Of a stretch of DNA of 64,000 nucleotides, positions 4,150-61,087 are shown one piece after another. The DNA lies in NCBI GenBank assembly GCA_002699145.1, contig PABK01000061.1:1-64000 (forward strand), in the 5' to 3' direction. The translations under genes and the position numbers were made by a program. The notes beneath the pieces are model-generated. The model worked only from the letters and a program-made list of their open reading frames with translations. It made no database searches and was not told the DNA's origin. The stretch is from Halioglobus sp. (GTDB lineage Bacteria > Pseudomonadota > Gammaproteobacteria > Pseudomonadales > Halieaceae). Numbering within the stretch: the stretch's first letter is position 1; every line of letters starts with the position of its first letter.

Positions 4150-4171
4150 TAACAAACAAGGTTGACTGTTT
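4150..4171 (+). promoter_or_regulatory. Operator A with promoter for the Rieske gene
   Basis: One of eight copies of the 22-bp palindrome AAACARTCA-N4-TGACTGWTT; here the left arm is TAACAAACA and the right arm is a perfect TGACTGTTT. The right arm overlaps a -35 box TTGACT (4162-4167), with TATTCT (4185-4190) exactly 17 bp downstream. Binding of a repressor here would block the promoter. The downstream gene starts at 4253. Confidence 0.7.
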
Positions 4172-4252
4172 TTTTGTCAGGCGCTATTCTGGGATGAGTT
4201 GCCTGGGCCACACGCCAGGCGTCCACGCCATGCCGACAGGTACGACACGCCA

Positions 4253-5635
4253 ATGAGTGACGAGATCAAGTTGACGCCCGAGCAAATCGCCGCCCGCGAC
4301 CCGTCATACAGCTTCCAGGAGCTGCTGGACAGGGAGCGCGTGCCTGTGCCCGAGGCACTGCGCGAGAGCACCGACACCTACCTGGGCAGCGAGGACCTGC
4401 CCATCGAGCGCTGGACGTCGCGCGAATTCTTCGAGCGCGAGGTGGAGAAGGTCTGGCGCAAGACCTGGCAGATGACCTGTCGCGAGAGCCAGCTGCGCAA
4501 CCCCGGCGACTACTTCGTCTACGACATCGTCGACGACTCCATCGTCATCACCCGCACCGAGGCCGGTGAACTGCGCGCCTTCCACAATTCCTGCCTGCAC
4601 CGCGGGCGGGTGCTCAAACGCGGTGCCGGGCAGAGCCCCGAATTGCGCTGCCCCTTCCACGGCTGGAGCTGGAACCTGGAGGGCGAGTTCCAGGGCGCGC
4701 CCTGTGACTGGGACTTTCCCCACGTGCGCGCCGAGGAATTCAAACTGCCCCAGGTGCGCGTGGCGACCTGGGGCGGGTGGGTGTTCATCAACATGGACCA
4801 GCAGGGACCTGACCTGCCCGAATACATGGGCGTGTTGCCGCAACACCTGGCGCGCTGGAAGCACGAGCAACGTTACGTGTCCGCACACATCGAGAAGGTG
4901 ATCGGCGCCAACTGGAAAACCGTGCTCGAGGCGTTCATCGAGTCCTACCACGCCATCGCCACCCATCCGCAGCTCATGCCTTTCCAGGCCATCGACAATT
5001 CCCAGTACGATGTCTGGGGTGATCACGTGAGTCGCACGATTACCGCCTACGGCGTTCCCAATCCCTCGGATGCGCACCGGTTCTCCGAGCAGGAGTCGCT
5101 CGACGCGATGATGAAACTGGCCGGCAGCGAGGAGCGGCCACAGGTCGAGCCGGGCCAGACCGCACGGGAAAAACTGGCTGAAATCAGCCTGCCGGTGGTC
5201 AACGAACAGGCTGGCGAGGACCTGTCGGGACAAGCCACGATGTCCGAACTGATGGACTCCACCCTGTACCTGCTGTTTCCCAATTTCGCGCCCTGGGCCG
5301 GCCACCACACCATCATCAACTACCGGCACCGCCCCAACGGCAACGATGTCGACAGCAGCATCATGGATATCTACCTGCTGACCCGCTATCCCGAGGGCAG
5401 TGAACCGCCGCCGGACGCGGCGACCTGCAGCCTGGGTATCGACGAGCCGTTCAAGGACGCGGCGCATATCCTCGGACCGGGCCTGGCGAATGTCTTCGAC
5501 CAGGACGGCGCCAACCTGCCCCAGGTGCAGAAGGGGCTGAAAGCATCGAAGAAGGGCGCGATCACCCTGAGCAACTACCAGGAGGTGCGCATCCGCCACT
5601 TCCACCAGACGCTGGATAAATACCTGCAGTCCTGA
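4253..5635 (+). CDS. Rieske non-haem iron aromatic ring-hydroxylating oxygenase, alpha subunit
   Basis: A 460-residue protein. The Rieske [2Fe-2S] ligands are C114-x-H116 and C133-x2-H136 (CLHRG, then CPFHGW). The mononuclear iron histidines are H233 and H238 in ESYHAIATHP. Such enzymes use electrons from a reductase to hydroxylate aromatic, steroid or terpenoid substrates; no ferredoxin or reductase gene is adjacent. I chose the ATG at 4253 (MSDEIK) over an upstream ATG at 4229 or the open frame from 4199, because the latter is too close to the predicted -10 box to be the translation start. It is under operator A. Confidence 0.93.
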   Translation: MSDEIKLTPEQIAARDPSYSFQELLDRERVPVPEALRESTDTYLGSEDLPIERWTSREFFEREVEKVWRKTWQMTCRESQLRNPGDYFVYDIVDDSIVITRTEAGELRAFHNSCLHRGRVLKRGAGQSPELRCPFHGWSWNLEGEFQGAPCDWDFPHVRAEEFKLPQVRVATWGGWVFINMDQQGPDLPEYMGVLPQHLARWKHEQRYVSAHIEKVIGANWKTVLEAFIESYHAIATHPQLMPFQAIDNSQYDVWGDHVSRTITAYGVPNPSDAHRFSEQESLDAMMKLAGSEERPQVEPGQTAREKLAEISLPVVNEQAGEDLSGQATMSELMDSTLYLLFPNFAPWAGHHTIINYRHRPNGNDVDSSIMDIYLLTRYPEGSEPPPDAATCSLGIDEPFKDAAHILGPGLANVFDQDGANLPQVQKGLKASKKGAITLSNYQEVRIRHFHQTLDKYLQS

Positions 5636-5776
5636 CTCCCGCGACCTCGCCGCAGTCCCCCGGGGCCGTTCCCGGGCCTCTCAAGCCACCGTGCGCGATC
5701 GTCGCAGCGAAGCGGCGCACGGGCGCGTGTTTCTGGGCTATGCTAGTGCTGGTTGAATCAAGGGAGGAATGAATAC

Positions 5777-7309
5777 GTGAAACTGCCATTACTTGCGTGC
5801 AGGGTGTTGTCGCTGTTTGTGCTGGTGCTGTGTGCCGCGCCGGGTTGGGCGGCCGATAAACCGAACATACTGGTGATTTTCGGTGACGACATCGGCTACT
5901 GGAACATCTCGCGCTACAGCCTGGGCATGATGGGGTACCCCACGCCCAACATCGACCGCATCGCGCAGGAAGGCATGATTTTCACCGACTACTACGGCGA
6001 GCAGAGCTGCACCGCCGGCCGCTCGGCCTTTATTACCGGCCAGCTGCCCATCAGGACGGGGCTGACCAAGGTCGGCATTCCCGGGTCCGAGATCGGCATC
6101 CAGGCCGAGGATCCGACGCTGGCCACCCTGCTGCGCCCGCACGGCTACACCAGCGGGCAGTTCGGCAAGAACCACCTGGGTGACCGCGACGAGTTCCTGC
6201 CCACCAACCACGGTTTCGACGAGTTCTTCGGCAATCTCTATCACCTCAATGCCGAGGAGGCGCCCGAGGATCCGGACTACCCGCAGGACCCGGCCTTCCG
6301 CAAACGCTTCGGCCCGCGCGGGGTCATCCGCTCCTTCGCCGACGGGCGCGTGGAGGACAGCGGCCCGCTGACCCGCAAGCGCATGGAGACCGTGGACGAG
6401 GAGTTTCTCGCCGCGGCGCTGAAGTTCATGGACAAGGCGCACCGCGATGACAAGCCTTTCTTCGTCTGGTTCAACTCCACGCGCATGCACTATTACACGC
6501 ACGTCAAGGAATCGCAGCTGGGCGCGTCCGGCCAGGGTTTTTACAACGACGGCATGCTGGAGCACGACGGCCATGTCGGCGCGTTGCTGGACAAGCTGGA
6601 TGAACTGGGTATCGCCGACAACACCATCGTGCTGTACACCACCGACAACGGCCCCCATTACAACCAGTGGCCGGACGCGGCGATCTCGCCCTTCAGGGGC
6701 GAGAAGAACACCAACTGGGAGGGGGGCTTCCGTGTGCCCGCCATGGTGCGCTGGCCGGGCACCGTGCGGCCCGGCAGCATCAGCAACGAGGTTATGTCGC
6801 ACCTGGACTGGGTGCCCACCCTGATGGCCGCCGTGGGCGATGCCGACATCGCCGCCAAGCTCAAGCGCGGCAAGACGCTGGAGGGCCGGACCTACAAGGT
6901 GCACCTGGACGGCTACGACTTCCTGCCCTTCCTGCGCGGCGAGGCGGACAGCGGTCCGCGGCGTGAATTTTTCTACTTCAGTGACGACGGGCTGTTGACC
7001 GCCGCGCGCGTGGACGACTGGAAGCTGGTGTTCGCCGAACAGCGCGCACGGCGCTTCGATGTCTGGCGCGATCCCTTCGTCACCCTGCGCATCCCCAAGG
7101 TCTTCCACCTGCGGCGGGACCCCTTCGAGCGCGCCGACACCGATTCCAACAGCTACAACGTCTGGTGGGATCGCAAGATCGCCAGTGTGGGCGCGATGGG
7201 TACCGGCTCGGTAACGCGGCTGGTGATGTCGCTGCGGCAGTTTCCCCCGCGGCAGCGCCCGGGCACTTTCACCGTCGACCAGATTATGGAGGCGGTCTAC
7301 CAGAAGTAG
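5777..7309 (+). CDS. Exported arylsulfatase-type sulfatase
   Basis: A 510-residue type I sulfatase. The GTG at 5777 is preceded by AGGGAGG at the right distance and starts a clean signal peptide (hydrophobic residues 8-20, cleavage near GWA-AD at 25). The formylglycine motif is C78-T-A-G-R (CxAxR), and GDDIGYW carries the metal-binding aspartates. It should hydrolyse a sulfate ester in the periplasm after conversion of Cys78 by a maturase, which is not in this window. The 141-bp gap from the Rieske gene allows separate or shared transcription. The substrate is unknown. Confidence 0.9.
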   Translation: MKLPLLACRVLSLFVLVLCAAPGWAADKPNILVIFGDDIGYWNISRYSLGMMGYPTPNIDRIAQEGMIFTDYYGEQSCTAGRSAFITGQLPIRTGLTKVGIPGSEIGIQAEDPTLATLLRPHGYTSGQFGKNHLGDRDEFLPTNHGFDEFFGNLYHLNAEEAPEDPDYPQDPAFRKRFGPRGVIRSFADGRVEDSGPLTRKRMETVDEEFLAAALKFMDKAHRDDKPFFVWFNSTRMHYYTHVKESQLGASGQGFYNDGMLEHDGHVGALLDKLDELGIADNTIVLYTTDNGPHYNQWPDAAISPFRGEKNTNWEGGFRVPAMVRWPGTVRPGSISNEVMSHLDWVPTLMAAVGDADIAAKLKRGKTLEGRTYKVHLDGYDFLPFLRGEADSGPRREFFYFSDDGLLTAARVDDWKLVFAEQRARRFDVWRDPFVTLRIPKVFHLRRDPFERADTDSNSYNVWWDRKIASVGAMGTGSVTRLVMSLRQFPPRQRPGTFTVDQIMEAVYQK

Positions 7310-20054: not shown

Positions 20055-20076
20055 AAACAATCAGATTTGACTGTTT
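20055..20076. promoter_or_regulatory. Operator B in a divergent promoter pair
   Basis: The best palindrome of the set: left arm AAACAATCA, right arm TGACTGTTT, 4-bp spacer. Forward promoter: TTGACT (20067-20072), 17 bp, TAGTTT (20090-20095), towards the zinc alcohol dehydrogenase. Reverse promoter: TTGTTT (complement of 20055-20060), 17 bp, TAACGT (complement of 20032-20037), towards the SDR-Rieske operon. One bound dimer would cover both -35 boxes. Confidence 0.75.
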
Positions 20077-20161
20077 ATTTTTTATCGGGTAGTTTCGACC
20101 CGGTTTGTGCGCTAGCCGACCCGTTCCGGGTCGCCCGATGCAGGCCTTTGCGAGGAGACAG

Positions 20162-21193
20162 ATGAAAGCGGCGGTATTCAAGGAAGTCGGCCAGCCCCTG
20201 GTGGTGGAAACCGTCGACGATCCCACGCCTGAGCCCGGCGAACTGGTGATGAAGGTCGGATACTGCGGCATCTGTGGCACCGACCTGCACGCCACGCGGG
20301 AGGGGCTGACCACGGCCTGTTGCGGCCAGATTCTCGGCCACGAGTACGTGGGTGAAATCGTCGAGGTTGGCGCGCGCGCCGAGGGCGACTGGCAGGTGGG
20401 CGATCGTGTCTGCGCCATGCCGTTTATCGCCTGCGGTCACTGCCTGCCCTGTGCGGCCGGTCGATTTTTCGAATGCGCCGACAAGAAAGTGTCGGGCGTG
20501 GACGACCAGGGAGGGTTCGCCGAGTACGTCACGACCGGCAGCCGTGAAACGTTGCTGCTTCCCGACACGCTGGAGTTACGCAGCGCGGCCCTGGTGGAGC
20601 CATTGGCCGTTGGCATCCACGCCGTGCGCGTCGCCGGGGTGCGCGCGGGCAGCCGCGTATTGATCATCGGCGCCGGCCCCATCGGGCTCACCACCGCATT
20701 GTGGTGCCGGTTTTTTGGCGCCCGCGATGTCGTCATCAGTGAACTGGCCCCGGCGCGCGCCGCGCTGGCCAAACAGATGGGCGCCACCGCGGTGCTGCAC
20801 CCGGACGTGGAGGAGGGCGCTGAGGGACTATTGCAGCAGTACGTGGATGCCGCGGGCGCGCCGCCGGACGTCATTTTCGAATGCGTGGGCGCGCCTGGCC
20901 TCATCCAGCAGTGCATCGAGATGGCGTCCTACGGCAGCAGTGTTGTGCCAGTGGGGGTCTGCGAGCAGCCGGATGCGATCATGCCGTTCCTGGGCCTGGT
21001 CAAGGAACTGCGCATCCAGTTCGCCATGGCGTACAACAAGGACGACTTCGAGACCAGTGTGGCGATGCTGGCGGAGGGTCGTATCGACGTGACGCCGATG
21101 ATCACCGATACCGTCTCGCTGGATGAGTTGCCGGAGGCGTTCGAGGCGCTGCGCACGCCCAGCGACCAGTGCAAGGTGCTGACGCAGCTCTGA
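20162..21193 (+). CDS. Zinc-dependent alcohol dehydrogenase (threonine dehydrogenase-like MDR)
   Basis: A 343-residue medium-chain dehydrogenase. Catalytic zinc residues lie in GYC35GIC38GTD and GH60E61. The structural zinc cysteines are C91, C94, C97 and C105. The NAD(P) site is GAGPIGLTT. It resembles the sorbitol/threonine/butanediol dehydrogenase branch. The ATG at 20162 has a strong GAGGAG site; the upstream frame begins right at the predicted -10 region. Transcribed divergently from the Rieske operon under operator B, it probably oxidises an alcohol intermediate of the same pathway. Confidence 0.9.
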   Translation: MKAAVFKEVGQPLVVETVDDPTPEPGELVMKVGYCGICGTDLHATREGLTTACCGQILGHEYVGEIVEVGARAEGDWQVGDRVCAMPFIACGHCLPCAAGRFFECADKKVSGVDDQGGFAEYVTTGSRETLLLPDTLELRSAALVEPLAVGIHAVRVAGVRAGSRVLIIGAGPIGLTTALWCRFFGARDVVISELAPARAALAKQMGATAVLHPDVEEGAEGLLQQYVDAAGAPPDVIFECVGAPGLIQQCIEMASYGSSVVPVGVCEQPDAIMPFLGLVKELRIQFAMAYNKDDFETSVAMLAEGRIDVTPMITDTVSLDELPEAFEALRTPSDQCKVLTQL

Positions 21194-25659: not shown

Positions 25660-28068
25660 TCAGTGCCGCAGGCGCAGCGTGACGCCGTACACCTCGCCGG
25701 GTGCGACGATACCTGCATAGCCGCCGAGCACGGGTATATCGATGCCGAAGGCGAAATATTCTTCATCCAGCATATTGCGCCCCCAAAGGGCGGCTTCCCA
25801 GCTGCCCTCGGGGTCGGTCAGCGTCAGGCGCAGGTTGACGAGGTTGATCGCGTCGTTTTTCAGTATTGGGTCGAGGTCCTGGTCGAGGTAGTAGTCGTCG
25901 ATATAGCTGTGCTCCAGCCGTCCCACCAGCAGCAGGGCGTCGCCCAGGTCCAGGTCGTACTGGGCGAAGGAGCTTACGGTCCACTCCGGCGCGTTGTCGA
26001 TGGGTTCGCCCGCCAGGTCCTGCACGCAGCCGCCGCCCAGTGTCGGGTTGCCGCCCTGGGCGCCGTCGCGGATATAGTAGTTGTAGACGGTCTGGTCGAC
26101 GGTGCACTGGCCGTTGTCGAACTCCTTGTATTCCGCCTTGTTGTAGCCGATGGCGGTGCTCACTGTCAGGTTTGCCGCGGGGATGAATACCAGCTCCAGC
26201 TCGCTGCCGTAGCTCTCCATGGAGCCGGCATTGGTGACTTCCAGCGTCGTGCCGTCGAAAGTCTGCGACTGGAAATCGTCGTAGTCGACGAAATAGAAGG
26301 TGCCGTTGAACTGCAGGCGGCGGTCCTGGGTCGAAGTCTTCCAGCCGATCTCATAGTTGGTGGCGATCTCCTCATCGAACTCCGCGCTGTGGTCGGCCAG
26401 CTCGCGGCGCTGGTTGAAACCACCGGACTTGAAGCCGCGGCTGACACTGGCGTAACCCATCACGTCGGGCGTGAAAAAGTAGCGCAGGTTGAGGGACGGG
26501 GAGATGTCGTCGTCGCTGCGGGTCTCGTCGTAATAGATGTCCGGGCCGGCGACGGGGGGAATGTCCAGTATGGATTCCGGGTCGGTGATCTGCGAGCCGA
26601 CGCGGTCTTTCTGCTCGTAGGTATAGCGCAGGCCCAGGGTGGCGCTGAATTCCTCGCTGATGTTCCACACCACCTGACCGAAGGCCGCGTAGCTGGTTGT
26701 CTCGTAATGGTTGTCGTCGGTATTGACGGTGCCGTCGGGGAAGAAGATATCTATCCCCATGTTTTCCACCAGCGCCTGTGACTGGACGAAAGTGCCCAGG
26801 GAGTCCAGTTCCGAGTAGTAGAAATACAGCCCGCCCTGGTAGTCGAACGTCTCGCCGCCGGGAGACGTGATACGCAGCTCGGAGGAGTACTGGTCGAGTT
26901 CTACATCCTGGGTCGAGGTCACCGCGTTGTACGCCGTGAAGTCGCCATCGAAGGCGCTGTCGGATTCGTAATGGCGCCAGGCATTGATGAATGTCAGCAC
27001 ATTGTCGCCGGTTATATCCTTGTTCCATTCCAGCGCCACGCCGCCGACGTCCAGTTCGTTGCGGGTGGGTCCGTCCAGCCAGTAGTCGTCGCCAAACGGG
27101 TCGGCGTCGGGTGGTGTGAACCCCTCAGAGTCCTGCATGGAATAGTATTGGTAGATAAGCTGGCCGTTGTCATTGAGGCCAAGGAAATCCTGGAACGCCT
27201 GGGAGGGGTCATTGGTACCGGGGGCGTTCAACGGCGAGAAGCCGTTGTAGTCGATGACCGCCAGCGCGCAGCAGTCGGTATCTTCCCTGGTGTAGTCCAG
27301 TGTGAGCAGGAATTCGCCGAGGCCGTCGCCGTCGCTCTCTACTCCGCCGTCGAAGCGCGTGCGCGACTTGAAGCCCCACTTGTGCGCGTCGTTCAGGTCC
27401 TCACCGTTGTAGGTGTTCTCGTACAGGTGATCGCCGTCGATGTAGAAGCCGGTGAGACGGCTGGCGTGTCCGCTGTCGCCCAGCGGGACGTTGACCATGC
27501 CGCGCAGTTCCAGCTTTTCGTCGCTGTTGTAGGTCAGTTCGCCTTCGCCCTCGAATTCCAGGGAGGGAGTACGACTGATGATGCTGATGGCGCCGGCGGC
27601 GGTATTCTTGCCGTACAGGGTACCCTGGGGCCCGCGCAGCACCTCGACGCGTTCGATGTCCATGAGGTCGGAGACGCTCATGCCGGCGCGGCCCTGGTAA
27701 ACGCCGTCGATGAAGATGCCGACGCTGGGGTCGATGCCCACGTTGGTGCCCACCGAGCCGATACCGCGTATCCGCACCGAGGTGGAACGCGAGTCCACGC
27801 CGGGGGTGATCGTCAGGCTGGGGGTGTACTGGTCCAGGCCCGCCAGTTCACGCACGCCGCTGTCTTCGAAGAAATCGCCGGTAAACGCCGACACGGACAT
27901 GGCCACTTCCTGCAGGCTTTGCTCGCGGCGGTTCGCCGTGACAACGACTTCCTCCAGGGCCAGCACCGGCGACGCCTGCTGCGCGGAGGCAGCGGGAAAA
28001 CAGCAGGGGGCGAGCAGCACCACGAGTACGGGAAAGCGCGGATTGGGCATGTTGGACACCAGTGACAT
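25660..28068 (-). CDS. TonB-dependent outer-membrane receptor
   Basis: An 802-residue receptor with a signal peptide (cleavage near ASA-QQ, residue 29), a TonB box-like segment EEVVVTANRREQ, a plug domain (IRGIGSVGTN, GIFIDGVYQGR, VEVLRGPQGTLYGKN) and a 22-strand barrel ending in GVTLRLRH with a less usual C-terminal His. It belongs to the Fe-siderophore/complex-carbohydrate receptor type often used for terpenoids, steroids and aromatics. It is divergent from a carotenoid oxygenase; the reverse promoter of operator C (TTGTTT, 17 bp, TAGGGT) is positioned to drive it. This suggests uptake of the regulon's hydrophobic substrate. Confidence 0.93.
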   Translation of the reverse strand: MSLVSNMPNPRFPVLVVLLAPCCFPAASAQQASPVLALEEVVVTANRREQSLQEVAMSVSAFTGDFFEDSGVRELAGLDQYTPSLTITPGVDSRSTSVRIRGIGSVGTNVGIDPSVGIFIDGVYQGRAGMSVSDLMDIERVEVLRGPQGTLYGKNTAAGAISIISRTPSLEFEGEGELTYNSDEKLELRGMVNVPLGDSGHASRLTGFYIDGDHLYENTYNGEDLNDAHKWGFKSRTRFDGGVESDGDGLGEFLLTLDYTREDTDCCALAVIDYNGFSPLNAPGTNDPSQAFQDFLGLNDNGQLIYQYYSMQDSEGFTPPDADPFGDDYWLDGPTRNELDVGGVALEWNKDITGDNVLTFINAWRHYESDSAFDGDFTAYNAVTSTQDVELDQYSSELRITSPGGETFDYQGGLYFYYSELDSLGTFVQSQALVENMGIDIFFPDGTVNTDDNHYETTSYAAFGQVVWNISEEFSATLGLRYTYEQKDRVGSQITDPESILDIPPVAGPDIYYDETRSDDDISPSLNLRYFFTPDVMGYASVSRGFKSGGFNQRRELADHSAEFDEEIATNYEIGWKTSTQDRRLQFNGTFYFVDYDDFQSQTFDGTTLEVTNAGSMESYGSELELVFIPAANLTVSTAIGYNKAEYKEFDNGQCTVDQTVYNYYIRDGAQGGNPTLGGGCVQDLAGEPIDNAPEWTVSSFAQYDLDLGDALLLVGRLEHSYIDDYYLDQDLDPILKNDAINLVNLRLTLTDPEGSWEAALWGRNMLDEEYFAFGIDIPVLGGYAGIVAPGEVYGVTLRLRH

Positions 28069-28157: not shown

Positions 28158-28179
28158 AAACAAACAGAATTGACTGATT
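28158..28179. promoter_or_regulatory. Operator C in a divergent promoter pair
   Basis: Left arm AAACAAACA, right arm TGACTGATT, 4-bp spacer. Forward promoter: TTGACT (28170-28175), 17 bp, TAGGGT (28193-28198), towards carotenoid oxygenase 1. Reverse promoter: TTGTTT (complement of 28158-28163), 17 bp, TAGGGT (complement of 28135-28140), towards the TonB receptor. The two -10 boxes are identical and symmetric about the operator. Confidence 0.75.
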
Positions 28180-35780: not shown

Positions 35781-35864
35781 GGGTGGACTCCTGTCGGGGT
35801 GGCTGGAGGCGGGGCCGGGCGCCCGCGGTCGGGACAAAGTCTAGGCCAGTTATGGTATAAAATA

Positions 35865-35886
35865 AAACAGTATCGCCTGATTGTTT
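35865..35886. promoter_or_regulatory. Operator F between nitroreductase and acyl-CoA dehydrogenase
   Basis: Left arm AAACAGTAT, right arm TGATTGTTT, 4-bp spacer; a near-perfect palindrome. On the plus strand TTGTTT (35881-35886) is followed after 17 bp by TAGCAT (35904-35909), a good promoter for the gene at 35978. No equally good reverse promoter is seen. Confidence 0.7.
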
Positions 35887-35977
35887 TGGGCAGACCCCTT
35901 TGCTAGCATGGTCGGCCAGCGCGTCGGCGCCAGCGGGCGGCGGCCTCCCGATCATATTCAGCGAGCAAGGGTACAGC

Positions 35978-37093
35978 GTGGATTTTTCCCTCAGCGAGGA
36001 ACAGGTTCTGCTGCGCGACAGCGTGCAGCGCTACGCGGCGGAGCAGGGGGGCGTGGAGCGTCACCGCAGGCTCGCCGCCGGCGAGCCCGGGTTCGACCCG
36101 CAGGCCTGGGCGCGCTTCGCGGAGCTGGGCTGGCTGGCGGTGCCTTTCACCGACGCCGACGGGGGGTTCGACGGTGGCGCCGTGGAACTCATGCTCATCG
36201 GCGAGGCCCTCGGCGCCGCCATGATGCGCGAGCCCTACCTGCATACCGTCGTCACCTGTGGCGGCCTGCTGCAACGCGGCGGCAACGCGCAGCAGCGCGC
36301 GCGTCATATCCCGGGCATCATCGAGGGCGCGGCCCAGTGGGCCCTGGCCTGCGTCGAAACCGGCAGCGATTACGACCTGACCCGCGTGGCCACGCGGGCC
36401 GGGGCGCAGGGCGAGGGCTATCGCCTGGACGGCGCCAAGATCGCCGTGCTCAACGGCCACTGCGCGGACCACTTTATCGTCACCGCACAGTGCGCGCGCG
36501 GGCTGACCCTGTTTGTCGTCGATGCCAACGCGGCGGGACTGCGCCGCGAAACGTTTACCGCGGTCGACGGCGGCCGCGGTGCGCACCTGCACTTCGACGG
36601 CGTGGACCTGGACGCGGACAGCGTGCTGGGCGCCGAGGGCGAGGGCGCCGCGCTGCTGGAGCGCGTGCTGGACACGGCTATCGTCGCCATGGGCGCCGAG
36701 GCGCTGGGCGCCATGCAGGCGCTGCTGGACGCCACTGTCGAGTACACCCGCACCCGCGAGCAGTTCGGCCAGCCGATCAGCCGCTTCCAGGTGCTGCAGC
36801 ACCGCATGGCCGATATGTACCTCAAGGTCGAGGAGACGCGCTCGCTGTTGCTCAACGCCGCCATCGCGGTGGACCAGGACAGCCCCGGGCGCGCCGCGGC
36901 CTGTGCCGCACTCAAGGTGAAGCTCGCCGAGGCCGGCCGTCACGTCTCCCAGGAAGCGGTGCAACTGCACGGCGGCATCGGCATGACCGATGAACTGGCG
37001 GTGGGGCACCACTACAAGCGACTGATGCTGCTCGGCCGCCTCTACGGTGACGAGAACCACTACCTGCAGAAGTACGTCGGCCTCGCCGCCTGA
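35978..37093 (+). CDS. Acyl-CoA dehydrogenase family protein
   Basis: A 371-residue protein with the acyl-CoA dehydrogenase fold: VDFSLSEEQVLLRDSVQRY at the N-terminus, EYTRTREQFGQPISRFQVLQHRMADMY in the helical domain and EAVQLHGGIGMTDELAVGHHYKRL near the end. The mid-domain substrate/FAD signature is degenerate (ALACVETGSDYDL), as in the smaller partner subunits of heterotetrameric steroid-type dehydrogenases. I chose the GTG at 35978 because it begins the family similarity. The gene is under operator F. Confidence 0.87.
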   Translation: MDFSLSEEQVLLRDSVQRYAAEQGGVERHRRLAAGEPGFDPQAWARFAELGWLAVPFTDADGGFDGGAVELMLIGEALGAAMMREPYLHTVVTCGGLLQRGGNAQQRARHIPGIIEGAAQWALACVETGSDYDLTRVATRAGAQGEGYRLDGAKIAVLNGHCADHFIVTAQCARGLTLFVVDANAAGLRRETFTAVDGGRGAHLHFDGVDLDADSVLGAEGEGAALLERVLDTAIVAMGAEALGAMQALLDATVEYTRTREQFGQPISRFQVLQHRMADMYLKVEETRSLLLNAAIAVDQDSPGRAAACAALKVKLAEAGRHVSQEAVQLHGGIGMTDELAVGHHYKRLMLLGRLYGDENHYLQKYVGLAA

Positions 37094-38015: not shown

Positions 38016-38708
38016 TCAGGTGCTGGAGTGCCGCCCGATGGCGGTGCTCCCGCCTTCCTTGAAAATTTCTTCGAGGCGGTCGCAGAGGTAGTCGATCAGG
38101 CGCTCGACGCGCGCCTCACGGTCGGTCATCAGGCGACTGCTGGCCATGCCCTCCATCATGAACCTGCTGACGTCCATGGCCAGGAGAAAACGGTCGCCGG
38201 TCGCCAGCCACTCGGTGAACAGTGTCCCGTTGCACTCCAGTACATGCTGCTCGAACACCTGCTGGGAGCTTTCCAGAATGGCGCGCAGCTCCGGGTCCGT
38301 GCGGCTGGCAAAACTCAACTCGTTGTACACGGTGAACAGGTCGCCGTTAAGGTAATCCCAGTACGCCCGGATGCCCGCGCGCCGCCGCGCGGCGCCGGTC
38401 AGCGACGCGGGGATCTCGCCGATGCGCCGGGTGTAGTCTTCGAGGAGCTTGTCGTGCAGGTACTCCACCGCCGCCTGGATCAATTCGGTCTTGGAGGGGA
38501 AGTGGTGCAGCATGGCGCCGCGGGAGACCCCCGCGGACTGCGCCACCTTGGCCGTGGTGACGTTGGTGTAACCCAGTTCGATGAAGCAGTTGATCGCCGC
38601 GTCGAGGATGCGATCGCGGGTCATGGCGCTTTTCTGCGCCTGCCAGCTGATATCCCCGTCCCGTTCCGTGGGCCTGCGTTTAGCCGCAGGGTCTTTTTTC
38701 GCCGCCAT
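38016..38708 (-). CDS. TetR-family transcriptional regulator
   Basis: A 230-residue repressor-type protein with an N-terminal TetR helix-turn-helix (RDRILDAAINCFIELGYTNVTTAKVAQ, then SAGVSRGAMLHHFPSKTELI, about residues 31-75) and an all-helical ligand domain. It begins with a basic 28-residue extension. A degenerate copy of the 22-bp operator lies about 30-50 bp before its start codon, consistent with autoregulation. It is the only TetR gene in the window and so the best local candidate for the regulon repressor; this is inference. It is followed by the EamA gene. Confidence 0.92.
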   Translation of the reverse strand: MAAKKDPAAKRRPTERDGDISWQAQKSAMTRDRILDAAINCFIELGYTNVTTAKVAQSAGVSRGAMLHHFPSKTELIQAAVEYLHDKLLEDYTRRIGEIPASLTGAARRRAGIRAYWDYLNGDLFTVYNELSFASRTDPELRAILESSQQVFEQHVLECNGTLFTEWLATGDRFLLAMDVSRFMMEGMASSRLMTDREARVERLIDYLCDRLEEIFKEGGSTAIGRHSST

Positions 38709-38733: not shown

Positions 38734-38755
38734 TTAAAAACCGACCTGACTGATT
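38734..38755. promoter_or_regulatory. Operator H (degenerate) before the TetR gene
   Basis: Right arm TGACTGATT matches the consensus, but the left arm TTAAAAACC is poor. A second palindrome, CTGATT-A-AATCAG (38750-38762), abuts it, so the right arm may be read as paired half-sites in another orientation. Such a weaker site would fit autoregulation. Confidence 0.45.
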
Positions 38756-43534: not shown

Positions 43535-43879
43535 TCACGCGGTGAAAAAATCCGCGCGGGGTTTGCCCTCGGGGTCGTACACCGGCTCTTCCAGGTCGAT
43601 GCGGTACTTCGACACCTCGGCGTCGGCGACACCGTACCTGCCCAGGCAGGCGAGCATGTCCCGGTAGTAGGGGCCCGCCAGGTGCGCGGCGAGGTGTTCG
43701 CTGCTGGCCCATTTTTCCAGCACGTAAACGCGCGTGTCGGAGGTGGGGTCGGCGCTCCAGACGTAGTGTTCACAGCCCGGCTGGGTACGTGTTTCTGCGA
43801 CCAGCGCGGCGCTCTCCGCCAGCGCTTTTTCACGTTCACCCGCCGGGAGGTGTACCGTGCCTGCGATGAGTATGGTCAT
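43535..43879 (-). CDS. Antibiotic biosynthesis monooxygenase (ABM) domain protein
   Basis: A 114-residue ferredoxin-like dimeric fold protein: ILIAGTVHLPAGEREKALAESAALVAETRTQPGCEHYVWSADP, then YVLEKWASSEHLAAHL with the usual conserved EKW and H. ABM proteins are cofactor-free oxygenases or simple ligand binders. It is the first gene of the minus-strand operon ABM, molybdopterin enzyme, LLM, aldehyde dehydrogenase, and is fed by the reverse promoter at operator D. The start at 43879 (MTILIAG) begins the domain. Confidence 0.85.
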   Translation of the reverse strand: MTILIAGTVHLPAGEREKALAESAALVAETRTQPGCEHYVWSADPTSDTRVYVLEKWASSEHLAAHLAGPYYRDMLACLGRYGVADAEVSKYRIDLEEPVYDPEGKPRADFFTA

Positions 43880-43977: not shown

Positions 43978-43999
43978 AAACAATCAGGGTTGACTGATT
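43978..43999. promoter_or_regulatory. Operator D in a divergent promoter pair
   Basis: Left arm AAACAATCA, right arm TGACTGATT. Forward promoter: TTGACT (43990-43995), 17 bp, TATGTT (44013-44018), towards the NADP reductase at 44047. Reverse promoter: TTGTTT (complement of 43978-43983), 17 bp, TACCGT (complement of 43955-43960), towards the ABM operon. The stretch TTTTTTGTCAGGCGCTAT downstream is identical to that after operator A. Confidence 0.75.
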
Positions 44000-44046: not shown

Positions 44047-45069
44047 ATGAGCGAATTGACGAACCGCCAGTACTACCTGGCAGCGCGCCCCAGTGGTTTG
44101 CCGACCGAGCGCGACGTGCCCTGGCGCGACGTGCCCGTGGCCGAGCCCGGCGAGGGCGAGGTGTTGCTGCGCAACCTGTACATTTCCCTGGACCCGGCAA
44201 TTCGTGGCTGGATGGGGGACGATCCCAACTACATCGAGCCGATCGCCATCGGCGACGCGGTGCGCAGCTCGGTGATCGGCCGCGTGGTGAAAAGCCGCAG
44301 CGACGATGTCGCGGTGGGTGATGTGGTGATGAGCGTCGGCGGCTGGGAGCGCTACACCATCGCGTCCGCAGCGGCGCTGAGCAAACTCGACGAGAGCGCC
44401 GGCATTCCGCTGAGCTACTTCCTGGGCGTACTGGGCCCCACCGGGCTGACCGCGTACTTCGGTTTGCTCGAGGTGGGTCGACCGCGCGCCGGCGAGACCG
44501 TGCTGGTCAGCGCCGCCGCCGGTGCGGTGGGCTCCATCGTCGGGCAAATTGCCAAAATGCAGGGCTGCCGCGTGGTGGGGCTGGCCGGCAGCGACGACAA
44601 GTGCGCCTGGCTGCGCGATGAACTGGGTTTCGACGCGGTGATCAACTACCGCAGTTGCGGCGACTGCGAGGCGGCGATCCGCCAGGCCTGCCCCGACGGC
44701 GTGGACGTGTATTTCGACAACGTCGGCGGCGAGATTCTCGAGGCGGCCCTGGCCTGCCTGAACAAGTTCGCGCGCGTCGCCGTGTGCGGCTGGATATCGA
44801 CCTACAACGAACCGGACGCGCCGGGACCCAGCGCGCGCAGGTTGTGGCAACTGGTCGCCAACAGCGTGACCATCCAGGGTTTCGTGGTACTGGACTACAG
44901 TGAGCGCTTCGCCGAGGGCGTGGCGCAGCTCGCCGAGTGGGTCATGGCCGGCAAACTGAAATTTCGCGAGGAAGTGGTGTCGGGGCTGGACAATATCCTG
45001 CCCACGTTCCACCGCCTGTTCGACGGCTCCAACCAGGGCAAACTGGTGATCGAGCTGCCCGAGGAGTAG
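44047..45069 (+). CDS. NADP-dependent medium-chain reductase (CurA/PTGR-like)
   Basis: A 340-residue zinc-free medium-chain dehydrogenase/reductase of the leukotriene B4/curcumin reductase type. The NADP site is AAAGAVGSIVGQIAK, YISLDPAIRGWM is the family's N-terminal signature, and FDNVGGEILEAAL and GFVVLDY follow. It should reduce alpha-beta unsaturated ketones or aldehydes. It is transcribed alone, divergent from the ABM-molybdopterin operon under operator D. Confidence 0.9.
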   Translation: MSELTNRQYYLAARPSGLPTERDVPWRDVPVAEPGEGEVLLRNLYISLDPAIRGWMGDDPNYIEPIAIGDAVRSSVIGRVVKSRSDDVAVGDVVMSVGGWERYTIASAAALSKLDESAGIPLSYFLGVLGPTGLTAYFGLLEVGRPRAGETVLVSAAAGAVGSIVGQIAKMQGCRVVGLAGSDDKCAWLRDELGFDAVINYRSCGDCEAAIRQACPDGVDVYFDNVGGEILEAALACLNKFARVAVCGWISTYNEPDAPGPSARRLWQLVANSVTIQGFVVLDYSERFAEGVAQLAEWVMAGKLKFREEVVSGLDNILPTFHRLFDGSNQGKLVIELPEE

Positions 45070-49054: not shown

Positions 49055-49065
49055 CCCCGCTGACC

Positions 49066-53305: not shown

Positions 53306-53725
53306 TCAGGCGGGGCGGGTGAAGGCGCCGCTGAGGTCCGGCGGTCCCTGGTAGATGAAGTCGTACTCGCGACTGCGATACAGCCACTTGCCGTTGCGTC
53401 GCACGCAGGTATCCCGGTAGCGGCTGATAATGGCGGTCGCATTCCCTTCGAGGTCGCGGCAAAACTCCTGCAGGTAAACGTGACCGGAGGCGTGGTCGCC
53501 GTCTACCTGGTACAGGCAGGACGAGGGCAGGAGCAGGGCAAACTCGAAGGTATTCATCATCTGTCGCCACAGGGCCAGGACGTTGTCGCGACCGGCCACC
53601 GGTTCGCCGAGGAGGTGCCACTCGCCGTCCTCCGCCCAGGTGGAAATCCACGCGTCCGCGTCGTGGCGGTTGACGGCGTCGGCGTAGCGCGCCATGAGCT
53701 TGTGCAGTTCGAGTTCGTCGTGCAT
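53306..53725 (-). CDS. SnoaL/NTF2-like family protein
   Basis: A 139-residue SnoaL_4-type protein with LHKLMARYADAVNRHDADAWISTWAEDGEWHLLGEPVAGRDNV at the start and ISRYRDTCVRRNGKWLYRSREYDFIY at the end. The conserved W-x-E-DGEW block is typical of dehydratase/isomerase-like members. It is divergent from carotenoid oxygenase 2 with operator E in the 145-bp gap, so it is a likely member of the same regulon. Confidence 0.83.
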   Translation of the reverse strand: MHDELELHKLMARYADAVNRHDADAWISTWAEDGEWHLLGEPVAGRDNVLALWRQMMNTFEFALLLPSSCLYQVDGDHASGHVYLQEFCRDLEGNATAIISRYRDTCVRRNGKWLYRSREYDFIYQGPPDLSGAFTRPA

Positions 53726-53777: not shown

Positions 53778-53799
53778 AAAGAAACAGACGAGACTGTTT
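53778..53799. promoter_or_regulatory. Operator E between SnoaL and carotenoid oxygenase 2
   Basis: Left arm AAAGAAACA, right arm AGACTGTTT; the inner 18 bp AAACAG-N6-CTGTTT is a perfect palindrome. It lies 72 bp before the carotenoid oxygenase start. The flanking TTTTTCAGGC resembles the block after operators A and D, but the -35/-10 assignment is less clear here. Confidence 0.65.
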
Positions 53800-53870: not shown

Positions 53871-55277
53871 ATGGACCTGAGCGCCTTTCCCTACCTGCAG
53901 GGCAACTATGCCCCCGTTGAGGAAGAACGTGATTTCGGCGAGGGCGAATTGCGCGTCGAGGGCCGGGTGCCGGAGCAGCTGGTGGGCGCCTACATGCGCG
54001 ACGGTGCAAACTGCGCCTTCCAGCCGAATCACTACGTCTACCCGCTGGACGGGGACGGCATGATCCACTCGATGTATTTCGACCAGGGCAAGGTGCACTA
54101 CCGCAATCGCTGGGTCGAGACCAGTCACCTGAAGACCGAGCGCCGGTTTGGTCGCACCATCTACGGCAGCGTGGGCAAACTGCTCGAGGTGCCGCAGGAG
54201 GTGATCGATGCCGGCGGCGAACCCAACCCGGTGCGCAACACCGCCAATACCAATGTCCTGTACCACGGCGGCAAACTGCTCGCCATGTGGGAGGGAGGCT
54301 TTCCCCACCTGCTCAACAACGACCTGTCGACGGTCGGCTTGTACGACTACGACGGTACGTTGCAGGCCGGCGACGCACTCACCGCACACCCGAAAATCTG
54401 TCCCGACAGTGGGCAACTGATATCCTGCACACAGCGCTGGGACAGCCCGGACTACCACGTGCAGATATTCGACCGCAACGCGCGACATGTTCGCACCATC
54501 CCCGTGGAATTCGAGCGCAAGGGCATCATCCACGACCTGCAGATCACCGAGAACTACATCATTATCTTCTACGCGCCCGCGTTCCACAGCCTGGAAAAAG
54601 CCATGAAGGGCGAAGACCCGTTCATGTGGGAGGCGGAGAAGGGTACCCGCATCGTCGCCATCCCGCGCGACGGCAGCGGCGACAACCTCGTGTTCGAGAC
54701 CGAGGCGTTTTTCAGCTGGCACTTCTGCAATGGCTTCGAGAGCGGCGGCAAGATTGTTCTCGACTACGTCTGGATCAATTCCATACCCTTTACCCAGGCC
54801 CAGGGCACGGGAGTCGAGAAGCAGCCGCGCCGCATGTATCGCATGACCCTGGATATGAAGACCCGGCAGGTGACCAACGAACAGTTCTCCGACGTCTTCT
54901 GCGAGTTTTCCCGTGTCGACGAGCGCCGCATGGGCAAGGACTACCGCTACGGTTTCGCCGCATCCTCCAACGTCGAGTGGGGCGACGCCCACGGCTACAA
55001 TTGCACGGGGCGTTACGACTTCCACAGCGGTGAAACCAGGTTGTGGGATTACGGCCCCGAGGCCAATGCCGGCGAACCGGTGCATGTGCCCAACCCGGAC
55101 AGCGAGCGCGAGGAGGACGGCTGGGTCATGTGTTTTGTACACAACCCCGGGGAGGGCGCCTTCCTGTCGATTGTCAGCGCCGGCGACTTCGACGACGGTC
55201 CGGTGGCGAAGATCCACATCCCCGGTCGCGTACCCAATGGCTTTCATGCCAACTGGATGCAGGGGTTGAAGTTCTGA
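53871..55277 (+). CDS. Carotenoid cleavage oxygenase family protein 2
   Basis: A 468-residue RPE65/carotenoid/stilbene oxygenase family protein. Iron-ligand histidines are H173 (AHPKICP), H221 (IHDLQITENY), H284 (WHFCNGF) and H459 (GFHANW). It shares the fold but not close identity with the protein at 28234, so the substrates or positions may differ. GAGGAG precedes the ATG. It is the first gene of a plus-strand operon of DUF35, thiolase, two SDRs, acyl-CoA dehydrogenase and KSI-like genes under operator E. Confidence 0.92.
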   Translation: MDLSAFPYLQGNYAPVEEERDFGEGELRVEGRVPEQLVGAYMRDGANCAFQPNHYVYPLDGDGMIHSMYFDQGKVHYRNRWVETSHLKTERRFGRTIYGSVGKLLEVPQEVIDAGGEPNPVRNTANTNVLYHGGKLLAMWEGGFPHLLNNDLSTVGLYDYDGTLQAGDALTAHPKICPDSGQLISCTQRWDSPDYHVQIFDRNARHVRTIPVEFERKGIIHDLQITENYIIIFYAPAFHSLEKAMKGEDPFMWEAEKGTRIVAIPRDGSGDNLVFETEAFFSWHFCNGFESGGKIVLDYVWINSIPFTQAQGTGVEKQPRRMYRMTLDMKTRQVTNEQFSDVFCEFSRVDERRMGKDYRYGFAASSNVEWGDAHGYNCTGRYDFHSGETRLWDYGPEANAGEPVHVPNPDSEREEDGWVMCFVHNPGEGAFLSIVSAGDFDDGPVAKIHIPGRVPNGFHANWMQGLKF

Positions 55278-55349: not shown

Positions 55350-55775
55350 ATGAGCAGGGAAATACCAATCGCCGAGGGTTTGTTCACCTGGCCCGCCGAA
55401 CAACCCGCGTTACTGGGCAGCCGCTGCAACGACTGTGGGGTGGCGACCTTTCCCCAGGCGAGTTCCTGCATGGCCTGCTCCGGCGAGAACGTGAGCGTGG
55501 AGGAGCTGCCGCGGCGCGGCAAGCTGTGGACCTGGACCGTCCAGCGTTTCATGCCCAAGGCTCCCTACGACAGCGGCGAGACCATGGAGACATTCCAGCC
55601 CTATGGGGTCGGCTATGTGGAACTGCCCGGCGGGGTGCGCGTGGAGGGGCGACTGACCGAGAACGACCCGTCCCGGCTGTCCATCGGCATGGAGATGGAA
55701 GTGGTGTTCGAACCCTATCGCACGCAGGACAACGGTGACACGGTCATCGGCTTTTTCTTTCGGCCGGTGGCCTGA
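55350..55775 (+). CDS. Zn-ribbon OB-fold (DUF35) protein
   Basis: A 141-residue protein with a four-cysteine zinc ribbon (C26-x2-C29, C40-x2-C43) and an OB-fold (KLWTWTVQRF, VGYVELPGGVRVEGRLTE). DUF35 proteins bind thiolase-like enzymes and shape their active site, as in the steroid side-chain aldolase complex Ltp2-ChsH2. Here it directly precedes a thiolase-like gene (36 bp), so the two should form a complex. Confidence 0.9.
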   Translation: MSREIPIAEGLFTWPAEQPALLGSRCNDCGVATFPQASSCMACSGENVSVEELPRRGKLWTWTVQRFMPKAPYDSGETMETFQPYGVGYVELPGGVRVEGRLTENDPSRLSIGMEMEVVFEPYRTQDNGDTVIGFFFRPVA

Positions 55776-55811
55776 GGCCGTGGCCGGCAAGCGCAGACAA
55801 GAGACTCGAAA

Positions 55812-56954
55812 ATGGATGTAGCAATCGTCGGAATCGGCATTCACCCCTTTGGCAGGACACCGGCGCGCAGCGGCTTGCAGCAGGGCGCTTTCGCCGCCCG
55901 CCAGGCGCTGCAGGACGCGGGTACCCAGTGGCGCGACATGCAGTTCGCCTTTGGCGGCAGCGCCAGCGCCGGCAGCGCCGATGCGCTGGTCAACGAGTTG
56001 GGGCTCACCGGAATACCATTCATCAACGTGGCCAATGGCTGCGCCACCGGCGGCAGCTCGCTGATTTCCGCCTACAATGCCATCAAGTCCGGCGAGTACG
56101 ATATCGGCCTGGTCGCCGGCTTCGACAAGCACGAGCGCGGGGCCTTCAACGCAGACCCGGAAGCCCTGGGCCTGGGTCGCTGGTACGGCGAGGTGGGTAT
56201 GATGCTGACCACCCAGTTTTTCGCCATGAAGATCCAGAAGTACATGCACGACTATGGCATCAGTGCGGACACCCTGGCGCGGGTCGCGGAAAAGTCGTTT
56301 ATCAACGGCTCGAAAAATCCCAACGCCTGGCGGCGCGAGCCGATCTCGCGCGAGGAGATCGCCGGCTCGATAATGGTCAATGACCCGCTGACAAAGTACA
56401 TGTTCTGCTCGCCGTCGGAGGGTGGTGTCGCCCTGGTGCTGTGCCGCGCGGACCGCGCCGCGCAGTACACCGACACGCCGGTCTACCTGAAAGCGGCCAC
56501 GCTCAAGTCGCGCCGCTTCGGTTCGTTTGAGGTCTTTGCCCCCAGCCAGGCGCTGGAGCAGGTCGACGGGCCCACCGTCGACGCCGCGCGCACGGCCTTC
56601 GAGATGGCCGGTGTGGGGCCGTCCGACATCGATGTCATGCAGTTGCAGGACACCGAGGCGGGCGCGGAGATCATGCACATGGCGGAGAACGGCTTCTGCG
56701 AACACGGTGAGCAGGAGTCGTTGATCCAGTCCGGCGCGACCGCCATCGACGGCCGTATGCCGGTTAATACCGACGGCGGTTGTATCGCCAACGGCGAGCC
56801 CATTGGCGCTTCCGGTTTGCGCCAGGTCTACGAAAACGTGCTGCAACTGCGCGGCCAGGCGGGCGAGCACCAGGTGCCGGGCGACCCGCAGCTGGCCTAC
56901 AGCCATGTCTACGGCGCGCCGGGTATCAGCGCCGTCACCATCCTGCAACGCTGA
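55812..56954 (+). CDS. Thiolase-fold (SCP2/Ltp-type) protein, probable aldolase partner of DUF35
   Basis: A 380-residue thiolase superfamily protein. The nucleophile loop keeps Cys77 (NGCATGG). The usual catalytic GHP motif is GEP (GGCIANGEPIGASG) and the second catalytic Cys loop is replaced by YSHVYGAPG (Y363, H365, Y367). This pattern matches Ltp-type enzymes, some of which are retro-aldolases acting on steroid side-chain CoA thioesters. With the adjacent DUF35 protein, aldol cleavage of a CoA ester is more likely than thiolysis; this is inference. Confidence 0.85.
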   Translation: MDVAIVGIGIHPFGRTPARSGLQQGAFAARQALQDAGTQWRDMQFAFGGSASAGSADALVNELGLTGIPFINVANGCATGGSSLISAYNAIKSGEYDIGLVAGFDKHERGAFNADPEALGLGRWYGEVGMMLTTQFFAMKIQKYMHDYGISADTLARVAEKSFINGSKNPNAWRREPISREEIAGSIMVNDPLTKYMFCSPSEGGVALVLCRADRAAQYTDTPVYLKAATLKSRRFGSFEVFAPSQALEQVDGPTVDAARTAFEMAGVGPSDIDVMQLQDTEAGAEIMHMAENGFCEHGEQESLIQSGATAIDGRMPVNTDGGCIANGEPIGASGLRQVYENVLQLRGQAGEHQVPGDPQLAYSHVYGAPGISAVTILQR

Positions 56955-56961
56955 GGCGACC

Positions 56962-60064: not shown

Positions 60065-60493
60065 ATGAACGAGAATAACCCCGCCTACCAGATGTCACTG
60101 GTGTCGCGTGAATGCCTCAGGACCAAGGACAAGGAGCGCTGGCTCGGCATGTGGGCCGAGGACGGCAAGATCGAGGACCCGATAGGACCCAGCATGCTCG
60201 ACCCGGAGGGCAAAGGCATTGTCGGTCCCGAGGCGCGCGAGGCGTTTTACGACAACAACATCGCCAATTCCGATATCGAGTACATCATCCACGAGACCTA
60301 CACCTCGCACCTGGAGTGCGCGAATATCGTCACCCTCAATATCGTTATGGATATCGAGGGCAAGAAGTTCAGCCAGCAGGTCAACGGCGTGTTTACCTAC
60401 GCCTGCAACGAGGAGGGCAAGCTCACCTCGTTGCGCGGTTACTGGGAATTCGCCGAGGGCGCGGCGACGCTGAAGGAAGTCGAGGCCGCCTGA
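60065..60493 (+). CDS. Ketosteroid isomerase-like (NTF2 fold) protein
   Basis: A 142-residue protein with an N-terminal helix (MSLVSRECLRTKDKERWLGMWAEDG) and the KIEDPIGPSM block that resembles the delta5-3-ketosteroid isomerase EDPVG region. The ATG at 60065 has GGAG seven bases upstream; the longer frame from 59993 has no such support. It is the last gene of the operon, convergent with the PPOX gene (13 bp between). Confidence 0.82.
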   Translation: MNENNPAYQMSLVSRECLRTKDKERWLGMWAEDGKIEDPIGPSMLDPEGKGIVGPEAREAFYDNNIANSDIEYIIHETYTSHLECANIVTLNIVMDIEGKKFSQQVNGVFTYACNEEGKLTSLRGYWEFAEGAATLKEVEAA

Positions 60494-60506
60494 TCGCGTC
60501 CGTGGC

Positions 60507-61022
60507 CTAGCCCTGCAGGGCCTCGCTGGTGGTATCGCGCATGACACCGCCGTCGAAGGAGATGGTTTTCTCCGGCACCACCTCGATGATGATGCGCGCC
60601 GGCGTATCCAGGAAGGCGACGAAGTCTTCCGGGGTCGGCGCGGGACTGTTGGCGTGGCGGGCGAAGTCGGGGTAGAACCAGTCCTTGGTCTCCTGGTCCC
60701 TGTGCAGGATGGCGCGGCCCTTGAAGGTGATGGACTGGCTGATCTCGTTGTCCACGCCGGCGCTGGAAATCACCACGGCGCAGCGCGGGTCGCGAGCCAG
60801 TGCTTTCATGCGCGCGCGTTGCTCGGTGGCGGTGCACCAGATGCGCCCATGGCGCCAGATGTAGCTCATGGTCACGCCCATGCCGTGACCGTCGCGCGTC
60901 GTCCAGATAAAGGTCAGTTCGTTCTGTGCCAGCAGCAACTGTTCCTGTTTTTCCGATGTCAGGCCGTACATGGTGACGTCGTCGTAGTTCTCGACCTGCT
61001 CTTGGGTATTGGTTTCGCTCAC
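60507..61022 (-). CDS. Pyridoxamine 5'-phosphate oxidase (PPOX)-class flavin/F420 protein
   Basis: A 171-residue split-barrel protein: LLLAQNELTFIWTTRDGHGMGVTMSYIWRHGRIWCTA, ARMKALARDPRCAVVISS, and FKGRAILHRDQETKDWF. It fits the F420/FMN-dependent PPOX branch. Its start is 148 bp from that of the divergent SDR at 61170, with operator G between. A reductase or flavin-binding role in the same pathway is likely. Confidence 0.85.
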   Translation of the reverse strand: MSETNTQEQVENYDDVTMYGLTSEKQEQLLLAQNELTFIWTTRDGHGMGVTMSYIWRHGRIWCTATEQRARMKALARDPRCAVVISSAGVDNEISQSITFKGRAILHRDQETKDWFYPDFARHANSPAPTPEDFVAFLDTPARIIIEVVPEKTISFDGGVMRDTTSEALQG

Positions 61023-61065
61023 TGTCGGAGTCTCCGGCGCGGAATGAAATGGGACTGGGCCAAAT

Positions 61066-61087
61066 AAACAGTACGTCCTGACTGTTT
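61066..61087. promoter_or_regulatory. Operator G between PPOX and SDR
   Basis: Left arm AAACAGTAC, right arm TGACTGTTT; AAACAGT-N8-ACTGTTT is a perfect 7-bp half-site palindrome. A TAAGGT -10 candidate follows nine bases after the arm on the plus strand. It serves the SDR-SnoaL pair and possibly the PPOX gene. Confidence 0.7.

What the first reader, a model, noticed from the sequence alone, without database searches (positions are those of the whole stretch)
4150..61087. One 22-bp palindromic operator repeated before eight catabolic and regulatory transcription units
The palindrome AAACARTCA-N4-TGACTGWTT occurs at 4150, 20055, 28158, 35865, 43978, 53778 and 61066, and in degenerate form at 38734. 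Every copy is intergenic and within 45-160 bp of a start codon: Rieske, zinc alcohol dehydrogenase/SDR operon, carotenoid oxygenase 1/TonB receptor, acyl-CoA dehydrogenase/nitroreductase, NADP reductase/ABM operon, carotenoid oxygenase 2/SnoaL, SDR/PPOX and TetR. This points to a single regulon spanning about 57 kb. The TetR protein at 38016 is the natural candidate, but the AraC or LuxR proteins are not excluded.
Basis: partly seen in the sequence, partly recalled or inferred. Interest (0 to 1): 0.88.

Follow-up and report, generated by a model that had tools for sequence, protein, structure and literature searches.

The report
TetR-controlled catabolic regulon in marine Halieaceae
One short palindromic DNA switch sits in front of many breakdown genes in a group of ocean bacteria, most likely bound by one TetR-type repressor, so that a large and still unidentified degradation pathway can be turned on together.

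Summary
The palindrome is real. Seven copies lie at the stated coordinates (14 both-strand hits at up to 3 mismatches, 0.03 expected); an eighth, degenerate copy lies before tetR. The genome has nine places within one mismatch: these seven plus two elsewhere, before a cytochrome P450 and before a branched-chain 2-oxoacid dehydrogenase operon.

The layout is conserved in Halieaceae. In 28 relatives' loci 71 sites were found, none inside recognised coding stretches; several first genes always carry a site (znADH2 16 of 16), operon-internal luciferase never (0 of 19). The P450 site is kept in 20 of 20 fetched loci.

The window's TetR is the best-supported binder. All 23 genomes with a close orthologue have at least three sites, against 2 of 117 others, whose contigs end where tetR would lie. 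Eleven of 11 remote relatives (40-44% identical, near-identical recognition helix) carry a variant dyad before their own tetR. AraC, the LuxR-like proteins and a second TetR are disfavoured.

One operator arm is often a -35 box, 17 bp from a -10-like hexamer, suggesting repression by occlusion. Binding, effector and substrate are untested. New member of a known kind.

The parts
4150..4171 (.). operator before Rieske oxygenase; TTGACT arm 17 bp before TATTCT
4199..5635 (+). Rieske ring-hydroxylating oxygenase alpha-type (start codon uncertain)
   Evidence: Pfam PF00848/PF00355
19157..19918 (-). SDR, first gene of a leftward unit that continues with ThuA-like, acyl-CoA dehydrogenase, second Rieske and two SnoaL_4 genes (14878-19139)
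   Evidence: Pfam; operon by spacing
20055..20076 (.). operator between SDR unit and zinc ADH
20105..21193 (+). zinc-binding alcohol dehydrogenase (start uncertain)
   Evidence: Pfam
25660..28068 (-). TonB-dependent receptor
   Evidence: Pfam; site before it in 6 of 6 related loci tested
28158..28179 (.). operator between TonB receptor and carotenoid oxygenase 1
28234..29664 (+). carotenoid-oxygenase family protein 1 (CCO1), nearest solved relatives lignostilbene dioxygenases
35124..35837 (-). nitroreductase-family protein, followed by dienelactone hydrolase-like gene (34354-35073)
   Evidence: Pfam; site 12 of 12
35865..35886 (.). operator between nitroreductase and acyl-CoA dehydrogenase
35900..37093 (+). 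acyl-CoA dehydrogenase (pimeloyl-CoA dehydrogenase-like; start uncertain)
   Evidence: site 14 of 19
38016..38708 (-). TetR-family regulator, proposed repressor
   Evidence: Pfam; model pLDDT 85.9; structure comparison; orthologues
38734..38755 (.). degenerate operator before tetR (18-bp core at 38738, one mismatch)
43535..43879 (-). ABM-domain gene heading the molybdopterin oxidoreductase / LLM oxidoreductase / aldehyde dehydrogenase unit (38810-43712)
   Evidence: Pfam
43978..43999 (.). operator between ABM/molybdopterin unit and ADH_N_2-type dehydrogenase
44047..45069 (+). NADP-type medium-chain dehydrogenase/reductase
   Evidence: Pfam; site 16 of 16
53306..53725 (-). SnoaL_4 protein
   Evidence: Pfam; site 8 of 8
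53778..53799 (.). operator between SnoaL_4 gene and CCO2 operon
53871..55277 (+). carotenoid-oxygenase family protein 2 (CCO2), nearest solved relative apocarotenoid oxygenase
   Evidence: site 8 of 8
55350..56954 (+). ChsH2/DUF35 OB-fold protein and SCP2-type thiolase, downstream of CCO2; SDRs, acyl-CoA dehydrogenase and SnoaL_2 follow (56803-60493)
   Evidence: Pfam; PDB
60507..61022 (-). PNPOx-like protein
   Evidence: Pfam
61066..61087 (.). operator between PNPOx-like gene and SDR
61089..61949 (+). SDR (true start probably further downstream)
   Evidence: Pfam; start check

Best explanation
The palindrome is the operator of the TetR-family protein at 38016-38708. Consensus from 118 non-independent sites: AAWCARTCAR-N2-YTGAYTGWTT, with an 18-bp core AAWCAR-N6-YTGWTT; the two overlapping 18-bp registers, 4 bp apart, could allow two dimers. 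Without its ligand a TetR dimer covers the -35 box of divergent promoters and shuts off a peripheral catabolic pathway (two Rieske oxygenases, two carotenoid-oxygenase-family enzymes, a molybdopterin oxidoreductase, a luciferase-like oxidoreductase, dehydrogenases, DUF35/thiolase, acyl-CoA dehydrogenases, a TonB importer), an unlinked P450 and an unlinked bkd operon with its divergent TonB receptor. A substrate or CoA-ester intermediate would release it. Shown by computation: the sites, their conservation, their promoter position, their co-occurrence with tetR. Inferred: binding, sign of regulation, ligand, substrate.
Against: No binding or expression data. Co-occurrence is confounded with presence of the whole cluster. 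The site before tetR is absent in L056, L058, L059, L060 and L069, and in 8 others tetR follows luciferase at 16-111 bp without its own site; here it is degenerate. ACAD_b lacks a site in 5 of 19. The six genomes with 52-59% TetR have 0-1 sites by the strict pattern, although the looser matrix finds sites in their loci. bkd paralogues (52-54%) have no site, 0 of 8. The promoter scan found no promoter at 19800-20300 under its stricter rule. Sites in relatives are not independent samples.
Confidence: 0.85

Rival explanations
1. A different regulator, encoded elsewhere in the genome, reads the palindrome, and TetR merely travels with the cluster.
For: TetR presence is confounded with cluster presence; the genome encodes at least 20 other TetR-like stretches (22 matches).
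Against: The variant dyad lies before remote tetR homologues in 11 of 11 loci with near-identical recognition helix; TetR2 beside the P450 is found next to it in only 3 of 20 loci.
Confidence: 0.08
2. The AraC protein (1473-2561) or the LuxR-like proteins (31739-34113) bind it.
For: They lie in the window; AraC is near the 4150 site; weak HTH hits at 32411 and 33295.
Against: AraC orthologues (55-66%) are present in 12 genomes with 0-1 sites (G026, G029, G030, G036, G043, G046, G052, G132-G135, G139) and absent or only about 35% identical in nine with 3-6 sites (G115-G118, G121, G124, G129-G131). No LuxR-like homologue at E 1e-15 in the 28 loci.
Confidence: 0.03
3. TetR acts as an activator, or as both activator and repressor, rather than as a plain repressor.
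For: Some TetR-family proteins do both (abstract of PMC2628434 on Vibrio LuxR, seen in listing).
Against: Operator overlaps the inferred -35 box and lies 17 bp before a -10-like hexamer, the usual repressor position.
Confidence: 0.1
4. The motif is only a strong promoter element, not an operator.
For: One arm looks like a -35 box.
Against: Both arms are conserved as a dyad, 46 of 118 sites lack a good TTGACT arm, and the motif is absent as a rule from genomes without the cluster.
Confidence: 0.02

Closest known systems
CymR and the cym/cmt (p-cymene/p-cumate) operons of Pseudomonas putida F1 and Burkholderia xenovorans LB400
   Same: TetR-type repressor of a peripheral aromatic/terpene pathway; operator ACAAACAGAC-N6-GTCTGTTTGT (passage in PMC5224996) contains AAACAG-N10-CTGTTT, the same outer half-sites and 22-bp frame as here.
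   Different: Inner bases differ (AC-N6-GT against TCAR-N2-YTGA); gene content differs; here eight sites in one cluster plus two unlinked sites. The CymR protein itself was not compared.
KstR2 (and KstR) steroid regulons of mycobacteria and rhodococci
   Same: TetR-type repressor with a palindrome in divergent intergenic regions of a catabolic cluster including its own gene; KstR2 motif AnCAAGnnCTTGnT (passages in PMC3068626) resembles the AAGCAAGC variant of the remote relatives.
   Different: Spacing differs; NCBIfam KstR scores 27 bits against a cut-off of 280; no steroid ring-degradation set was sought.
Ibuprofen ipfABDE system (Rieske dioxygenase plus IpfD/IpfE thiolase)
   Same: Rieske oxygenase, sterol-carrier-type thiolase and OB-fold protein side by side in several relatives; ipfDE described as a thiolase removing propionyl-CoA (passages in PMC11347016).
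   Different: Sequences not compared; no ring-cleavage dioxygenase was identified among the window genes scanned; carotenoid oxygenases and molybdopterin enzyme have no counterpart mentioned there.
Lignostilbene / carotenoid cleavage dioxygenases (NOV1, LsdA, ACO)
   Same: CCO1 and CCO2 are RPE65-family proteins; CCO1 nearest NOV1/LsdA, CCO2 nearest apocarotenoid oxygenase.
   Different: CCO1 has Met and Glu where NOV1 has Tyr101 and Lys134 (role of those residues recalled); both score below NCBIfam cut-offs.

Membership tests
TetR/AcrR-family transcriptional regulators | N-terminal TetR_N HTH domain | tested here: met
   PF00440 E 3.4e-16, 59.2 bits against cut-off 24
TetR/AcrR-family transcriptional regulators | all-helical TetR fold | tested here: met
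TetR/AcrR-family transcriptional regulators | ligand-released repression of a palindromic operator | not testable with these tools
   needs gel shift and expression data
CymR regulon | operator AAACAG-N10-CTGTTT frame | tested here: inconclusive
   outer half-sites shared, inner bases differ
CymR regulon | orthologous CymR protein and cym/cmt genes | not tested
   no CymR sequence was compared
KstR steroid regulator | KstR equivalog score | tested here: not met
   NF033703 27 bits, cut-off 280
Lignostilbene dioxygenase (CCO1) | equivalog score | tested here: not met
   NF053778 409.1 bits, cut-off 800
Lignostilbene dioxygenase (CCO1) | Tyr101/Lys134 phenol-binding pair of NOV1 (recalled) | tested here: not met
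   Met and Glu at the aligned positions
8'-apo-carotenoid cleavage dioxygenase (CCO2) | equivalog score | tested here: not met
   NF052295 296.7 bits, cut-off 675
IpfABDE-type pathway | sequence orthology to IpfA, IpfD, IpfE | not tested
   only the gene-type combination was noted

The most novel reading that the evidence does not exclude
A TetR master switch controls a previously undescribed Halieaceae pathway that takes up a hydrophobic algal compound, perhaps an apocarotenoid or other isoprenoid, through TonB receptors, cleaves it with P450, Rieske and carotenoid-oxygenase enzymes, and feeds branched acyl-CoAs to a co-regulated bkd complex; the switch grew from a small Rieske-thiolase-DUF35-SDR module whose TetR still uses a close variant of the operator.
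Probability: 0.25. Interest if true: 0.65.

Novelty: new member of a known kind. Interest (0 to 1): 0.45.

Why it matters
Halieaceae respond to phytoplankton blooms (abstract of PMC10100682), and this gives a clean, testable regulon with a defined operator, about ten sites in one genome and a named candidate repressor. It links an unlinked P450 and a branched-chain oxoacid dehydrogenase to the cluster, which narrows the search for the substrate, and the TetR-operator pair could be used to screen for the ligand. The remote TetR relatives with a variant dyad offer a natural series for studying how a regulator and its operator change together.

Tried and rejected
AraC as binder: rejected by presence/absence. 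LuxR-like proteins at 31739-34113: only sub-threshold HTH hits and no homologue in 28 related loci. TetR2 beside the P450: next to it in 3 of 20 loci only. Canonical lignostilbene cleavage by CCO1: equivalog cut-off and recalled Tyr/Lys pair not met. Literature: eight searches listed no paper on this regulon; (Halieaceae, transcriptional regulator, binding motif, regulon) returned 0; PMC10100682 passages show no match for carotenoid, lignin, aromatic, steroid or P450. This covers only the open-licence library. Rfam scan of the window gave nothing. A promoter scan at one site found nothing under its rule. KstR2 and CymR were first recalled and then checked in paper passages.
Full report
Observation. 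The 22-bp pattern is exact only at 20055 and 43978. An 18-bp core, AAWCAR-N6-YTGWTT, fits six of eight exactly and the sites at 38734 and 61066 with one mismatch. At 20055, 28158 and 43978 two overlapping 18-bp registers 4 bp apart both fit at up to one mismatch. None of the eight lies in a called gene, and six lie between divergent genes.

Genome. The window's genome (G000, 5.2 Mb, 61 contigs) has nine places at up to one mismatch of a slightly looser pattern: the seven here, C3:401335 and C20:110525. The first lies between a P450 and a TetR/FMO-like pair, the second between a TonB receptor and E1/E1/E2 genes of a 2-oxoacid dehydrogenase.

Relatives. Named relatives of the TetR are Halioglobus, Haliea, Seongchinamella, Candidatus Litorirhabdus, strain HTCC2148 and other Halieaceae, plus Aestuariicella albida at 42%. 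In 28 such loci a matrix from the window sites finds 71 places at score 17 or more, none inside stretches matching window proteins, which cover 61% of bases. First genes carry sites: znADH2 16 of 16, nitroreductase 12 of 12, Mopterin 9 of 9, CCO2 8 of 8, SnoaL_c 8 of 8, TonB 6 of 6, ACAD_b 14 of 19, CCO1 5 of 7. ChsH2 has 3 of 7 and thiolase 1 of 7, znADH1 0 of 1; luciferase 0 of 19, ALDH 0 of 10, DLH 0 of 8, EamA 0 of 2, SDR_c 0 of 4 and the unknown 24769 protein 0 of 4 (homologues of at least 50% identity with the N-terminus covered). In L071, L072 and L074 a TonB-like gene lies between znADH2 and Mopterin, with sites on both sides. In L060, L062 and L064 a Rieske1 homologue sits beside the thiolase, whereas in the window it stands alone at 4199 with its own site.

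Unlinked members. P450 relatives (E up to 1e-120) occur in 28 of 140 family genomes. I fetched 20 of the 28, own genome included; all 20 have a site upstream. For bkd E1, 15 of 18 genus genomes matched; 7 of 7 loci at 86-100% identity have a site, 0 of 8 at 52-54% do.

Which regulator. TetR matches at E up to 1e-30 occur in 58 of 140 genomes, 23 of them (own included) at 68% identity or more. By a strict 22-bp pattern all 23 have 3-8 sites, some of which may be chance; of the other 117, G119 and G120 have four and the rest 0-2 (Fisher p 2e-24 on hand-entered counts). In G119 the contig ends 242 bp past the znADH2-type site and in G120 it begins about 5 kb from it, so tetR would fall off the contig if gene order is as here. 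Genomes at 52-59% TetR identity have 0-1 strict sites although their loci hold sites by the matrix. AraC does not follow the sites. The recognition helix VSRGAMLHHF is invariant in 21 TetR sequences at 53-80% identity. Eleven TetR relatives at 40-44% identity (ten fetched plus L050, of 30 rows under 50%) have VSRGAMMHHF and, 11 of 11, an 18-bp dyad within one mismatch upstream of tetR, typically AAGCAAGC-N2-GATTGTTT; thiolase and ChsH2 homologues adjoin in 6 of the 11. A twelfth, L159, has a one-mismatch dyad between two divergent tetR genes. Before tetR in the closer relatives, 13 of 26 have an exact 18-bp core (1.3% of 3000 random stretches), six have tetR within 51 bp of luciferase, two at 81-111 bp, and five (L056, L058, L059, L060, L069) have no such site.

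Mechanism. Over 118 distinct but related sites the consensus is AAWCARTCAR-N2-YTGAYTGWTT. In 72 the right arm matches TTGACT at 5 or 6 positions. In these the similarity to TATAAT peaks at a spacer of 17 (mean 3.03 of 6; 35 of 72 with four or more), while other spacers from 8 to 29 give 0.54-2.06 and at most 8 of 72. The -10 region lies outside the matrix, so this is independent of site finding. A dimer on the operator would cover the -35 box. Repression is therefore inferred. The promoter scan at 19800-20300 found no promoter under its stricter rule.

Pathway. Gene types come from Pfam. CCO1 is nearest lignostilbene dioxygenases and CCO2 apocarotenoid oxygenase, but neither reaches an equivalog cut-off, and CCO1 lacks NOV1's Tyr101/Lys134 (role recalled). 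The P450's nearest solved relatives include TamI and CYP142 steroid C26-monooxygenases; the thiolase is nearest SCP2-thiolases. Rieske, SCP2-thiolase and OB-fold protein together recall ipfADE (passages of PMC11347016). CCO2 is not seen between ChsH2 and SnoaL_c in L071, L072 and L074, so the carotenoid oxygenases may be later additions. The substrate stays open.

Known systems. The operator's outer frame equals that of CymR, and the variant in remote relatives resembles the KstR2 motif. This is a TetR-type catabolic regulon, new as far as the searches of the open-licence library go.

Noticed in passing
L081:4335-5642 (+), G000 contig C13: A 435-aa ORF with two separate matches to the window's TetR, so apparently a double TetR protein (compare Mce3R).
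   Followed up: partly
window 31739-34113 (-): Three adjacent proteins of unknown family, two with sub-threshold sigma-r4/LuxR-like HTH hits; not found in the 28 related loci at E 1e-15.
   Followed up: partly
L079:7030-10598: P450 divergent from a TetR and an FMO-like gene; the P450 is found in 28 of 140 family genomes, the TetR beside it in 3 of 20 fetched loci.
   Followed up: yes
L076 and L159: Two divergent tetR genes, both related to the window's TetR, with a dyad between them.
   Followed up: partly
L140-L147: bkd E1 paralogues (52-54%) on contigs that in some genomes also hold tetR; no operator within the fetched 1.5 kb.
   Followed up: partly
window 45879-51992 (-): ICMT-like protein and MacB/ABC/HlyD/OEP export genes inside the cluster region without an operator copy.
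   Followed up: no
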